Source of the DNA: Tenericutes bacterium HGW-Tenericutes-2
Lineage (GTDB): Bacteria > Bacillota_I > Bacilli_A > Acholeplasmatales > Acholeplasmataceae
Direction: 5' to 3'
DNA: 61,023 bases
NCBI GenBank assembly: GCA_002839095.1
Contig: PGXL01000012.1
Location: forward strand, 1 to 61,023
Shown here: piece by piece, positions 2,680-8,907 of the stretch
Layout: each line of letters opens with the position of its first letter
Numbering within the stretch: position 1 is the first letter of the stretch
Translations under genes and position numbers: made by a program
Notes under the pieces: model-generated
Database searches by the model: none
What the model saw: the letters and a program-made list of their open reading frames with translations, nothing else
What the model was told of the DNA's origin: nothing

Positions 2680-3387
2680 TTACTTTTCGTTGTATTGATA
2701 ATAGTAATAATTCGAATAATTTGTATCCTTCTTACGAATTCTTGTGAGAACACTACCGATAATATTTGCTCCATTATCCTTTAATTCCTTAATGACTCGC
2801 TCACATGCATCGATATTGGTTTCTCTGGATGCAATGACAAGAATCGTACCATCTACAAAGCTTGAAATAATTGCAGCATCTGCTACTGCAGTCATTGGAG
2901 GTGTATCGATAATAATGATATCGTATAAATCTCTTAATTTTAAGATTAATTCCTTGAGTTGTGCACTCATTAAAAATTCTGCAGGAAATGGTAGTTTATT
3001 TCCGGCTGTAATGACATCTAGCTTAGGAGTAACTTTATGGATTGCTTCACTTAATTCAAGATTATCTGTAATGATATTAGATAAACCATTTTTATGACTT
3101 AAATGAAAACCTCGATGAATCTTAGGCTTTCTTAAATCCATATCGATTAATAAGGTTTTCTTCTCACTTTGAGCATAAACAGTTGCTAAGTTAATCGATG
3201 TTACCGTCTTTCCTTCCATCATCTTAGTTGATGTGAGTGAAATGACCTTGACTTCTTTATCAAAGTTAGATAATTCAATATTGGTTCTTAATTTTCGATA
3301 TTGTTCAGAGATAACTGAATTTGGTTCTTTACTTGAAATTGGAATATAGGAGTCTAAACGCTTGTTAAGTTTATTTAATCTGTTCAT
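2680..3387 (-). CDS. BY-type tyrosine kinase of exopolysaccharide synthesis (CpsD/EpsB/CapB-like)
   Basis: 235 residues, the size of the separate cytoplasmic kinase found in Gram-positive-type systems. An atypical Walker A (TSTKMMEGKT, 52-61), the Walker A' motif LLIDMDLR (79-86) and Walker B IIIIDTPP (157-164) are all visible. The C-terminus carries the autophosphorylation tyrosine cluster YSNYYYYQY (224-232). It would be activated by the membrane adaptor encoded just upstream; the two genes overlap by ATGA (3384-3387), which suggests translational coupling. The PHP phosphatase further upstream is the expected antagonist. Confidence 0.92.
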   Translation of the reverse strand: MNRLNKLNKRLDSYIPISSKEPNSVISEQYRKLRTNIELSNFDKEVKVISLTSTKMMEGKTVTSINLATVYAQSEKKTLLIDMDLRKPKIHRGFHLSHKNGLSNIITDNLELSEAIHKVTPKLDVITAGNKLPFPAEFLMSAQLKELILKLRDLYDIIIIDTPPMTAVADAAIISSFVDGTILVIASRETNIDACERVIKELKDNGANIIGSVLTRIRKKDTNYSNYYYYQYNEK

Positions 3388-4082
3388 AGTGTTTCAATCT
3401 CCTCTTCCATATGATAATTAGGGATTGTTCCAAGGACACGTAAACCAAGTCTTTTTTCAATCTCACTTGGGTATTTCACTGTTCTGTCACATACTTCAAT
3501 TAAAAAGATTCCACCAACACCAACAATACCACCTAAAATGATACCAATCGCTACGTAAAGCAATCGATTAGGTCCACTAGGACCTTCAGGAAGGTGTGCT
3601 GTATCAAGAATTTCAATATTATCAAAGCCTTCATAATTTAAACTAACAGCTTGCATGACTTCTATCATTTTATTCGCGACCAGCATGGCTTCTTCATCAT
3701 CATGTGATGTGACAGAAAGCTTAATGATAATTGTCTCAGAGACTCCAGTAATGGTAATCATATCTCGAAATTGATTATGCTTGTAGTTAAGTCCCAGTTC
3801 ATCCATGACTCTAACAATCACTGTATCACTTTTAGCGAGCTCAGTATAAGTCTTCGCTAGACTTTGACCGTATTTATAACTTTGGTCTTGATTGAGCTCA
3901 TCGCTACTGACCAATACAATCATTGATGCATTTGCTGTATACTCATTTTCAAGCATGTCAAATGCATAAACATAAGCAACCATGAAAAATAGGACCATTG
4001 ATCCTAAAATCCAGTACCACTTATTCATTAAGATCTTAAATAAACTTAATAAGTCAATTTCATTCGTTTCATGTTCTTGCAT
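3384..4082 (-). CDS. Chain-length determinant / BY-kinase adaptor (Wzz/CpsC-like)
   Basis: 232 residues from the chosen ATG at 4082, which has AAGGAG six bases upstream; an in-frame ATG ten codons earlier overlaps the preceding gene and has no such site. A first membrane segment (about residues 22-42) and a second near 175-197 flank an extracytoplasmic Wzz domain. The C-terminal tail is the part that activates the partner kinase in this family. It ends in TGA inside the ATGA overlap with the kinase gene. It sets polysaccharide length and presents the kinase at the membrane. Confidence 0.88.
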   Translation of the reverse strand: MQEHETNEIDLLSLFKILMNKWYWILGSMVLFFMVAYVYAFDMLENEYTANASMIVLVSSDELNQDQSYKYGQSLAKTYTELAKSDTVIVRVMDELGLNYKHNQFRDMITITGVSETIIIKLSVTSHDDEEAMLVANKMIEVMQAVSLNYEGFDNIEILDTAHLPEGPSGPNRLLYVAIGIILGGIVGVGGIFLIEVCDRTVKYPSEIEKRLGLRVLGTIPNYHMEEEIETL

Positions 4083-4101
4083 GGTAATCTCCTTAAATTT
4101 T

Positions 4102-4791
4102 CTAGATGCCAATAATTTTTCTTGGGTTCTCTATAAATAATTTTTCTGCAGTTCTTAGACCTTTTTTCTTTACGACATAATGATAAGCTGATTTCATGCT
4201 AGAAACATCTGTTGCTGAATGTGCATCGCTTGCAACGACATCAATTAAATCTTCTTTTAAAAGCAATCTCGCTCTCTTGCATACCTTGCGGTAGATATTA
4301 CCTGTTAAGTTGGGTGATGACACCTGAAGGAGTGCACCTTCACGCTTTAATTGCTTTAAGAGTTCGATGTTAAAGAATTTCGTACGTTCAGGATGCGCAA
4401 TAACAACTTTATATCCGTGAATTCGTAGTTCATAAACCATTTCTGATATATCAATATCTCTTCTTGAAAAATCGACTAAGACATATTTTGAATTATTTAA
4501 TGTATGTCCATGTTCTAAAGTCTTTAGGATGGACTCATGTTCATCAATTTCCGCTCCTAAAAACAAGGATATATCAATATGCTGTTCATTTATCTTATCT
4601 TTTAGTATTTCAAATGCTTTTTGAATCTCTTCTTGAGTGCTTAAGTTTCTACGATATGGTGATACATGTGGTGTTAAACACACAGAATGTATACCAGCAT
4701 TTGCTGCAGACTCTAGCATCTTTATCGATTCATTTAAATCAGGTGCACCATCATCTACACCAAACAAAATGTGAGCATGTAAGTCTATCAT
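4102..4791 (-). CDS. PHP-family protein-tyrosine phosphatase (CpsB/YwqE-like)
   Basis: 229 residues. The N-terminal metal motif DLHAHILFGVDDG (residues 3-15), a central HPER and the C-terminal SDAH signature are those of manganese-dependent PHP phosphatases that dephosphorylate BY-kinases. Its position as first gene before the adaptor and the kinase is the classical order of such modules. It is separated from the regulator gene upstream by a terminator and a promoter-like -10. Confidence 0.9.
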   Translation of the reverse strand: MIDLHAHILFGVDDGAPDLNESIKMLESAANAGIHSVCLTPHVSPYRRNLSTQEEIQKAFEILKDKINEQHIDISLFLGAEIDEHESILKTLEHGHTLNNSKYVLVDFSRRDIDISEMVYELRIHGYKVVIAHPERTKFFNIELLKQLKREGALLQVSSPNLTGNIYRKVCKRARLLLKEDLIDVVASDAHSATDVSSMKSAYHYVVKKKGLRTAEKLFIENPRKIIGI

Positions 4792-6820: not shown

Positions 6821-6884
6821 CAGTTCACCTTCAATCTAAGTCTTACATTATATTAATCATATTTTATCTAGATGTTTCAGAAAA

Positions 6885-6911
6885 CTCCCTCTTCAAAGGA
6901 TTAAGTGGGAG
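6885..6911 (+). repeat. Left-end hairpin of the TnpB element
   Basis: CTCCCTCTT (6885-6893) pairs with AAGTGGGAG (6903-6911) with one T-T mismatch around a nine-base loop. It resembles the hairpins that TnpA recognises at the ends of IS200/IS605 elements. It is followed by a promoter-like region and AAGGGGGAG before tnpB. Confidence 0.6.
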
Positions 6912-7022
6912 ATGAATGAAACCGACTTTTTTCTTTAAAATATCTACAATTAACATTCCCTCATATATCATTACATGATATAATATAAGTATATATTATC
7001 GATGTAAAAGGGGGAGAATACT

Positions 7023-8165
7023 ATGAGTGAAACCATCAAAGGTTATGTCTATAGACTGAATCCTACAACCCAACAAATCAATCTCATTAACCAAACATTC
7101 GGATGTGTCAGAAAAATGTGGAATATACTCCTTTTCGAACGCAAATCCATCTATGAACTCTATGGAAAGTATCCAGAGTTACTGAAGAGTCATGACTATC
7201 TCAATCCTAAAACCATTAAAGAACAATTCCCATATATGTATGATGTTGACTCTCAAAGTCTAACCACTGCTTGGCTACATTTGAAACAAGCCTACAGTAA
7301 CTTCTTTAACAAGTCTCATAATGAACCTCAATATAAATCGAGACATAATCCCGTTCAATCTTATACAACCCATACGACCAATGATAATATTCGTATAGAG
7401 GGTACTTATCTGAAACTCCCTAAATTAGGACCTGTTAAGATAAAACTCCATAGAGCGTTACCTCATGGCTCCATAATTAAAGCAGCAACCATCAAGAGAG
7501 ATGGAAAGCGTTACTATGTATCTCTTCGCGTTGAATATGAACACTTATCACAACTAGAGAAAACATTTGAAAAAGCGATTGGACTAGATTATACCCTACA
7601 AGGTCTTTATATGGATAGTGAAGGAAACAAAGCTGATTACCCCAATTACTATAAGAAATCACTCAAGAAGTTAGCTAGAGAACAACGCATCTTATCCAAG
7701 AGAGTTAAAGGATCTGCTAACTACTTGAAACAAAAAGAAAAACTAGCTAGTCTGCATCTTCATATCAAGAACCAACGAAAAGACTTCCTACACAAAGCAT
7801 CTAGATATTTAGTGAATACCTATGATTTAATCAGTATCGAGACACTGGATTTAACTGAAATGGCGAAAACCAAGCATTTCAGAAAATCCATCTCTGATAC
7901 ATCATTTGGGACATTCACAAGATATCTTGAGTATAAAGCAAAGGATGAAGGAAAAACCTTAATCAAGATCGAGAAATATTATCCATCCACAAAGACCTGC
8001 AGTCAGTGTGGAAGAGAGCAAGATATATTACTCTCTGAACGCACATATCACTGTATCTGTGGACACGAGATGGATAGAGACCTAAATGCAGCAATCAATA
8101 TTGGTGTTCAAGGTTTAATCCAATATGTTAAAAATGCGTATGGAACAGACGCGTTAGCTTGGTAA
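7023..8165 (+). CDS. tnpB: TnpB RNA-guided nuclease of IS200/IS605 family
   Basis: 380 residues, within the usual TnpB range. An N-terminal helical domain and beta region is followed by the split RuvC nuclease: D189 in GLDYTL, E273 in ISIETLDL, and D351/D353 in DRDLNAAINI. The zinc ribbon has C326, C329, C344 and C346. All catalytic residues are present, so the protein looks active. In this family the protein uses an omega-RNA from the right end to cut DNA at vacated sites and keep the element in place. Strong ribosome site AAGGGGGAG before the ATG. It is one of the few plus-strand genes, consistent with insertion. Confidence 0.93.
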   Translation: MSETIKGYVYRLNPTTQQINLINQTFGCVRKMWNILLFERKSIYELYGKYPELLKSHDYLNPKTIKEQFPYMYDVDSQSLTTAWLHLKQAYSNFFNKSHNEPQYKSRHNPVQSYTTHTTNDNIRIEGTYLKLPKLGPVKIKLHRALPHGSIIKAATIKRDGKRYYVSLRVEYEHLSQLEKTFEKAIGLDYTLQGLYMDSEGNKADYPNYYKKSLKKLAREQRILSKRVKGSANYLKQKEKLASLHLHIKNQRKDFLHKASRYLVNTYDLISIETLDLTEMAKTKHFRKSISDTSFGTFTRYLEYKAKDEGKTLIKIEKYYPSTKTCSQCGREQDILLSERTYHCICGHEMDRDLNAAINIGVQGLIQYVKNAYGTDALAW

Positions 8166-8241
8166 ATTAACAAACAATAGTTTGTTTTACCCAAGAAGCC
8201 CCCACTTCTAATGGTTTTCATTAAGTGGTGGGAGTAGTTCA
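8166..8241 (+). ncRNA. Right end with predicted omega-RNA 3' part
   Basis: Immediately after the tnpB stop there is a perfect 7-base stem (AACAAAC 8169-8175 / GTTTGTT 8180-8186). A second hairpin follows: CCCCCACTT (8199-8207) with AAGTGGTGGG (8223-8232), one bulge. The element then ends at GTAGTTCAC. In this family an omega-RNA is transcribed from the 3' end of tnpB through such hairpins and uses the 16-20 bases beyond the element as guide; here that would begin near 8241. The 5' end of the RNA lies inside tnpB and cannot be fixed by eye. Confidence 0.5.
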
Positions 8242-8907
8242 CAGGAAAAAGATCGAATATGCAATCAAAATTTGTGCTGCATAGTAAGTAATTAAATTGG
8301 AAGCGATCATTGCTTTATGATTTATATGATTATAATAGATTGGAGCCAGTATTAAATCACTGATACCAAATAGGAATGCTCCAATTAAAATCATCATTAC
8401 ATTTGGGGTATTTCCTTGCTGCATGTAATAAACTATTGCTTGTCCAATCATTAAGAAAATAAGAAATGAATAGATATAGCTAGGAATCTTTGTTTTACCC
8501 ATTTGAAACTTCATTGCATAGCTAACTACCATCACAATTATAGTCATTCCGATACTGAAGAGTATGGAATAAAAGCTAAATCTAGATACTTCTAAAAGGA
8601 ATAACAAATAAAATATATGTCCTAATGAAAATGATATAATACCAGCTAAGATAATCGTGTGATCTTCTTCCTTTGGTCTAAGTGGTCGAAGCGCTAGAAT
8701 TAAATCACCAACCATACCAAATAATAGACCAATAACAATGAAGAGCAATGCTTCACTTATTCTCATTCCAAGACTTACTGATCCAAGAACTATAAATGAC
8801 ATACTAGCAATTGCCTTAAAAAAGAATGCAAAAAGAGGTTTATAAAATAACTCAACCCCGATATAAATACTAGAAAAAAGAATTGCAATCAGTAAATAGA
8901 CTGTCAT
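8239..8907 (-). CDS. YhhN/TMEM86-like membrane protein (lysoplasmalogenase family), 3' end altered by the IS
   Basis: 222 residues with about eight hydrophobic segments. The family landmarks are GDLILA (near 67-72) and GAFLFGISDLILA near 172-184, whose aspartates are thought to be catalytic. Characterised members hydrolyse the vinyl-ether bond of lysoplasmalogens. The TGA stop at 8239-8241 lies at the right end of the TnpB element, so the element has supplied or moved the stop codon. The length is still close to normal, so the protein may work. It is the last gene of the long minus-strand array. Confidence 0.75.
   Translation of the reverse strand: MTVYLLIAILFSSIYIGVELFYKPLFAFFFKAIASMSFIVLGSVSLGMRISEALLFIVIGLLFGMVGDLILALRPLRPKEEDHTIILAGIISFSLGHIFYLLFLLEVSRFSFYSILFSIGMTIIVMVVSYAMKFQMGKTKIPSYIYSFLIFLMIGQAIVYYMQQGNTPNVMMILIGAFLFGISDLILAPIYYNHINHKAMIASNLITYYAAQILIAYSIFFL

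What the first reader, a model, noticed from the sequence alone, without database searches (positions are those of the whole stretch)
6881..8260. TnpB-only element with an intact nuclease and readable omega-RNA end
All RuvC residues (D189, E273, D351/D353) and the zinc ribbon are present, there is no tnpA, and two hairpins follow tnpB up to the element end. The bases from about 8242 onward would be the guide, matching the YhhN-like gene. The element looks functional as an RNA-guided nuclease but not autonomous.
Basis: partly seen in the sequence, partly recalled or inferred. Interest (0 to 1): 0.55.

Follow-up and report, generated by a model that had tools for sequence, protein, structure and literature searches.

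The report
TnpB-only insertion element with guide RNA
This is a small selfish DNA element that carries a gene for an RNA-guided DNA-cutting enzyme (a relative of CRISPR Cas12) but no enzyme for moving itself; it looks intact and is a well-bounded example of a known kind.

Summary
Confirmed, with the left end corrected. Window 6868-8242 is a 1375-base IS200/IS605-type element of TnpB-only (IS1341-like) layout. It lies directly 3' of TTTAT (6863-6867), ends in TTCAC (8242) and carries tnpB at 7023-8165. Lining up 27 left and 28 right ends fixes both borders. Three closest relatives keep the YhhN-acetyltransferase pair without an insertion. TnpB has the ISDra2 catalytic triad (D189, E273, D353), a confident TnpB fold (pLDDT 89.7; best PDB match ISDra2 TnpB, Z 31.1) and dN/dS 0.13 against the genome's second copy. 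The 3' RNA has two hairpins, with compensatory changes mainly in the first, and GGAAC/GUUCAC placed as in the ISDra2 omega-RNA pseudoknot. The predicted guide starts at 8243, antisense to the last codons of YhhN, whose protein end is unchanged. No Y1 transposase was found in this genome; sister genome G014 has tnpA pieces behind nearly the same left end, so mobilisation in trans is likely. New member of a known kind. RNA, cleavage and movement are inferred, not shown.

The parts
6863..6867 (+). TTTAT: target site and predicted TAM, just outside the element
   Evidence: 25 of 27 distinct left ends read TTTAT, 1 TTCAT, 1 TTTTC; flanks 5' of it are unrelated; TTTAT is at the empty site of G019, TCTAT in G014 and G004
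6868..8242 (+). whole TnpB-only element, 1375 bases
   Evidence: borders from aligned copies and empty sites
6874..6922 (+). left-end subterminal hairpin (as single-stranded DNA)
   Evidence: DNA fold -8.4 kcal/mol, z -2.14, 6 of 200 shuffles fold as well; nearly the same left end precedes tnpA pieces in G014
7009..7016 (+). probable ribosome-binding site of tnpB (AAGGGGGAG-like)
   Evidence: read from the sequence; not tested
7023..8165 (+). tnpB, 380 aa, RuvC residues D189, E273, D353; zinc ribbon C326, C329, C344, C346
   Evidence: ORF; NF040570 guided_TnpB 314.9 bits against cut-off 100; three Pfam domains over cut-off; residue mapping; fold
8127..8242 (+). predicted omega-RNA scaffold (5' end set by analogy to the 116-nt ISDra2 scaffold)
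   Evidence: inference from ISDra2 and the conserved fold from 8145 on
8142..8146 (+). GGAAC, predicted 5' strand of the pseudoknot, inside the tnpB reading frame; partner 8237-8241
   Evidence: GGAAC in 27 of 27 copies long enough, GTTCAC end in 25 of them; same layout in ISDra2; no covariation to test it
8158..8195 (+). omega-RNA hairpin 1 (outer and inner stem), overlapping the tnpB stop codon
   Evidence: two pairs of the inner stem have changes on both sides; 97.9% and 98.1% of cells paired
8199..8232 (+). omega-RNA hairpin 2, also the right-end subterminal hairpin
   Evidence: 98.5% of cells paired, one pair with changes on both sides; DNA fold of 8163-8242 z -4.11, 0 of 200 shuffles
8238..8242 (+). 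TTCAC, right end of the element
   Evidence: 26 of 28 right ends read GTAGTTCAC
8243..8262 (+). predicted guide (first 16-20 bases of host DNA), antisense to the end of YhhN
   Evidence: position from ISDra2; matches G014/G004 empty sites with 2 and G019 with 4 mismatches in 20
8239..8907 (-). YhhN-family gene; its last bases and stop (TGA) come from the element's end, protein end FFL unchanged
   Evidence: Pfam YhhN 83.9 bits; joined flanks give FFL with stop TAA
6350..6820 (-). GNAT acetyltransferase gene, next to YhhN in relatives without the element
   Evidence: Pfam; adjacency in L114, L115, L116

Best explanation
A non-autonomous IS200/IS605-type element (left end, tnpB, right end; IS1341-like). 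A Y1 transposase supplied in trans by a related element, now absent from this genome, placed it 3' of a TTTAT at the stop codon of a YhhN gene (inferred). A transcript through tnpB and the right end into host DNA is trimmed by TnpB to an omega-RNA of about 116 nt plus a guide of about 16 nt starting at 8243 (inferred from ISDra2 and the conserved fold). The complex should cut the same site where it lacks the element (TTTAT plus guide match), so that repair from the element-bearing copy restores it (inferred). The occupied site is spared because the guide match there follows TTCAC. Shown here: borders, empty sites, intact and selected coding sequence, predicted fold, a covarying hairpin.
For: Borders from many copies; empty sites; triad invariant in 47 rows; TnpB fold; dN/dS 0.11-0.15 in ten pairs of five sequences; RNA structure against slid partners, 98.3% against 38-53% of cells paired; pseudoknot letters placed as in ISDra2; no Y1 in the genome; tnpA pieces behind a 93-95% like left end (about 61 bases) in G014.
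Against: No RNA, cleavage or movement data. The tnpA-bearing elements of G014 are cut by contig ends, so their right ends are unseen. The second zinc pair is CxC, not CxxC. Covariation is modest: 3 of 30 pairs, 7 cells; for two of the five measures 14 and 21 of 500 shuffles reach the observed value, and related sequences can beat shuffles without structure. TTTAT is at 1 of 3 close empty sites here; at the C16 site the relatives G004 and G014 read TTGAT and TTTGT. The NCBIfam IS200_TnpB model is matched below its cut-off, 341.9 against 425. The absence of Y1 rests on a 52-contig assembly.
Confidence: 0.85

Rival explanations
1. A dying remnant: an IS605 element that lost tnpA by deletion, with tnpB a passenger that has not yet decayed and no longer cuts.
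For: No Y1 in the genome; a broken short copy on C36 shows that decay happens here.
Against: dN/dS 0.13 between the two full copies of the genome; intact triad and ends; the match of the window copy to the G014 tnpA-bearing element stops at position 121 of 330, before the tnpA reading frame, so no tnpA remnant was seen; many tnpB-only copies in G014 at unrelated sites.
Confidence: 0.1
2. A host-domesticated RNA-guided regulator or nuclease rather than a mobile element.
For: Purifying selection and no transposase in the genome.
Against: The RuvC triad is intact, unlike the dead-nuclease TldR regulators (recalled, from no call). Copies sit at unrelated sites with both ends intact, and the site is empty in the three closest relatives.
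Confidence: 0.04

Closest known systems
ISDra2 TnpB (Deinococcus radiodurans, IS605 group)
   Same: Fold (Z 31.1, rmsd 2.3 over 344 residues), triad, RNA from the right end, pseudoknot letters and spacing.
   Different: 36% identity; TTGAT is its published TAM (TTTAT also usable, PMC12908284 passage); carries tnpA; CxxC/CxxC zinc finger.
IS1341-group TnpB-only elements
   Same: tnpB alone between left and right ends; 1252-1393 bp is the reported range for the shorter ones (PMC9956272 passage), here 1375.
   Different: The six species of that paper do not include this family; this group has a TTTAT/TTCAC end pair and a CxC zinc pair.
ISFba1 TnpB
   Same: Same fold, Z 29.7 over 356 residues.
   Different: 30% identity; its element and TAM were not examined here.
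tnpA-tnpB element of G014 contig C39
   Same: Same layout of ends; right end AGCC.CCACTTCTATTAAGTGGTGGGTAGTTCAC is like ours.
   Different: Its own TnpB is 39% identical, with a CxxC second pair, and it has a complete tnpA.

Membership tests
TnpB RNA-guided nucleases | RuvC triad D-E-D | tested here: met
   D189, E273, D353 align to D191, E278, D361
TnpB RNA-guided nucleases | curated family model over cut-off | tested here: met
   NF040570 314.9 bits, cut-off 100; the narrower exception model NF038281 is below its cut-off, 341.9 against 425
TnpB RNA-guided nucleases | TnpB fold | tested here: met
   model pLDDT 89.7; 8h1j Z 31.1, Foldseek E 2.6e-26
TnpB RNA-guided nucleases | four-cysteine zinc finger binding zinc | tested here: inconclusive
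   four cysteines present; spacing CxxC/CxC in 5 of 5 clade members against the typical CxxC/CxxC; CxC also in 3 of 43 more distant relatives; zinc binding not testable
TnpB RNA-guided nucleases | omega-RNA made from the right end and guided cleavage | not testable with these tools
   structure conservation only
IS200/IS605 superfamily, TnpB-only (IS1341 group) | subterminal hairpins, no inverted terminal repeats, insertion 3' of a short AT-rich site without target duplication | tested here: met
IS200/IS605 superfamily, TnpB-only (IS1341 group) | no transposase-derived sequence in the element | tested here: inconclusive
   no match to the G014 tnpA frame in the window copy; serine-recombinase remnants not tested
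IS605 group (autonomous) | Y1 tnpA in the element | tested here: not met
   0 of 1 genome with Y1_Tnp; the control set rings in 5 of 14 genomes

The most novel reading that the evidence does not exclude
In this genome the nuclease alone keeps the elements: with no Y1 transposase present, two diverged TnpB copies stay under purifying selection because RNA-guided cutting of empty alleles, met through DNA uptake or recombination, re-copies them. That would be a homing system that outlives its transposase.
Probability: 0.12. Interest if true: 0.5.

Novelty: new member of a known kind. Interest (0 to 1): 0.25.

Why it matters
It is a clean, well-bounded case in an Acholeplasmataceae-type group for an open question: whether TnpB-only elements are moved in trans, move alone, or are decaying IS605 copies (a passage of PMC9956272, calls this unclear). 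One sister genome holds many tnpB-only ends and tnpA-bearing pieces with nearly the same left end, which makes the trans model directly testable. It also adds a compact TnpB clade with a CxC zinc pair.

Tried and rejected
Rfam: no match at gathering score on the element; the one match in the window is a tRNA. Two weak hits at E 0.07 and 0.9 to animal RNA families are taken as chance. The first structure prediction, from four close sequences, was poor (pLDDT 43.8) and was not used. A viral-contig scan with the close alignment found no relative; with the wider alignment 341 stretches encode one, best 80 kept. Promoter and terminator scans were no better than shuffles. Best plasmid and phage matches are all under 60% identity (3617 and 585 records), so no recent source was found there. 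Domestication was considered and set aside.

Guide targets in the own genome: TTTAT plus 13 guide bases has no exact match; 7 places lie within 3 mismatches (one is the element's own right flank), against 14 for the reversed control pattern.

Rows dropped: of 28 distinct left ends, 27 went into (L067 left out as partial). Of 31 distinct right ends, 28 went into (L112, the L066/L094 remnant and L016 left out) and 27 into (L107 too short). Of 80 viral loci, 43 were used. In one search the script's pattern gave 28 CxxC, 3 CxC and 12 unmatched; by eye 11 of the 12 read C-x-N-G-H and one CxxC.

Full report
Where it is. The window is contig C29 of a 2.3 Mb genome in 52 contigs, 99.9% complete. The genome holds two full copies (the window's; C16 at 90% nucleotide identity) and one broken short copy on C36.

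Borders. Copies gathered from the genus were lined up. Left of TTTAT the flanks are unrelated; right of it the copies are nearly alike. Of 27 left ends, 25 read TTTAT, one TTCAT and one TTTTC. Of 28 right ends, 26 end in GTAGTTCAC. In the window this gives TTTAT at 6863-6867 and the element at 6868-8242.

Empty sites. YhhN orthologues were found in 15 of 20 genomes, the own one included. In the three closest (G014, G004, G019; 65-68% identity) the acetyltransferase gene follows YhhN with a short gap and no insertion. Joining the window's flanks gives the same arrangement, without a duplicated target. YhhN still ends in FFL; its stop would be TAA without the element and is TGA with it. The G019 empty site has TTTAT and 4 mismatches to the first 20 bases of the flank; G014 and G004 have TCTAT and 2 mismatches. 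The C16 copy sits just before the ribosome-binding site of a gene whose upstream region is uninterrupted in G004 and G014, where the junction reads TTGAT and TTTGT instead of TTTAT.

Protein. TnpB has three Pfam domains over cut-off. Its nearest PDB sequences are an AI-designed nuclease and ISDra2 TnpB. The triad aligns and is invariant in 47 sequences. The AlphaFold2 model from 47 sequences has mean pLDDT 89.7, pTM 0.71 and matches ISDra2 TnpB with Z 31.1, rmsd 2.3 over 344 residues. The second cysteine pair is CxC in 5 of 5 clade members and CxxC in 5 of 5 more distant relatives. CxC (3) and C-x-N-G-H (11) also occur among 43 viral-contig relatives, so I read it as natural variation, not damage. 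dN/dS is 0.11-0.15 in all ten pairs of five sequences.

RNA. The strand from 8145 to the end folds into two hairpin units in 27 copies: 98.3% of cells pair, against 38-53% when partners are slid by 1-3 columns; 3 of 30 pairs have changes on both sides (7 cells; shuffled mean 1.6, none of 500 as high). For the number of such pairs 14 of 500 shuffles, and for further pair types 21 of 500, reach the observed value. The clearest case is in hairpin 1 (G-C in 20 copies, A-U in 5, G-U in 2). The ISDra2 RNA has a pseudoknot between -5 to -3 and -105 to -103, with flanking non-canonical pairs (PMC10097598 passage). Here the RNA ends in GUUCAC, and GGAAC lies at -101 to -97; GGAAC is in 27 of 27 copies long enough and the GUUCAC end in 25 of them. 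This pseudoknot rests on letters and position; it does not vary enough to show covariation.

Movement. No Y1 transposase match in the genome. Of 20 genus genomes only G014 has one: a complete tnpA next to its own tnpB (39% identical to ours), and two tnpA pieces, cut by contig ends, directly behind a left end 93-95% alike to the window's over about 61 bases. G014 has 13 left-end matches, two of them before tnpA, and 12 right-end matches. The other carriers (G000, G004, G005, G016, G019) have no Y1 match; G004 and G016 are only about 80% complete. Mobilisation in trans is the best reading, not shown.

How it likely works. As proposed for ISDra2 (PMC8612924 passages), excision leaves an empty allele with the target motif next to the guide match; TnpB cuts it and repair from the sister copy restores the element. 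In the window the guide match follows TTCAC, so the occupied site should be spared. No other place in the genome matches TTTAT plus 13 guide bases exactly. The left hairpin is preceded by GAAAA and the right one by AGAAG, which could pair with the TTT of TTTAT and the TTC of TTCAC, as in the guide-sequence scheme of IS608 (recalled, from no call; not tested).

Literature seen. Passages of PMC12908284, PMC8612924, PMC10097598 and PMC9956272; outline and one section of PMC10278001; search listings. PMC12908284 already gives TTTAT as a TAM used for ISDra2 and ISYmu1. No paper in the held library has both Acholeplasma and TnpB; Peloplasma was not searched.

Verdict. An ordinary kind of element, with unusually clear borders and good evidence that it has been kept functional; interest 0.25.

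Noticed in passing
L066 / L094 (G019 contig C109, about 7260-7319): A 55-base remnant: the left end runs straight into the last bases of the right end, with TTTAT before it and TTCAC at its end; the fusion point lies in the ATTAA-TGG stretch shared by the two end hairpins.
   Followed up: partly
L006 (G000 contig C36:40362-40703, minus strand): A short copy with an internal deletion: left end joined to the 3' part of a broken tnpB (one stop codon, frame change) plus the right-end RNA region; its right end reads GTTAAT instead of GTTCAC.
   Followed up: partly
L114, L115 (G014, G004 YhhN gene ends): The empty sites match the first 10 guide bases, but the stop codon is TAG instead of TAA, which turns the would-be TAM TTTAT into TCTAT. 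Whether this is escape or plain drift is unknown.
   Followed up: partly
L005 (G000 contig C16, about 113991-115400): The second full copy sits between a promoter-like stretch and the ribosome-binding site of a gene starting MPTLFIAGDST (hydrolase-like by its GDS motif, recalled), so it may affect that gene's expression.
   Followed up: partly
window 2680-4791: Genes for a CpsB/CapC phosphatase, a Wzz chain-length protein and a ParA-like ATPase lie together on the minus strand (Pfam): a polysaccharide control set, odd for a group known for lacking a cell wall (recalled).
   Followed up: partly
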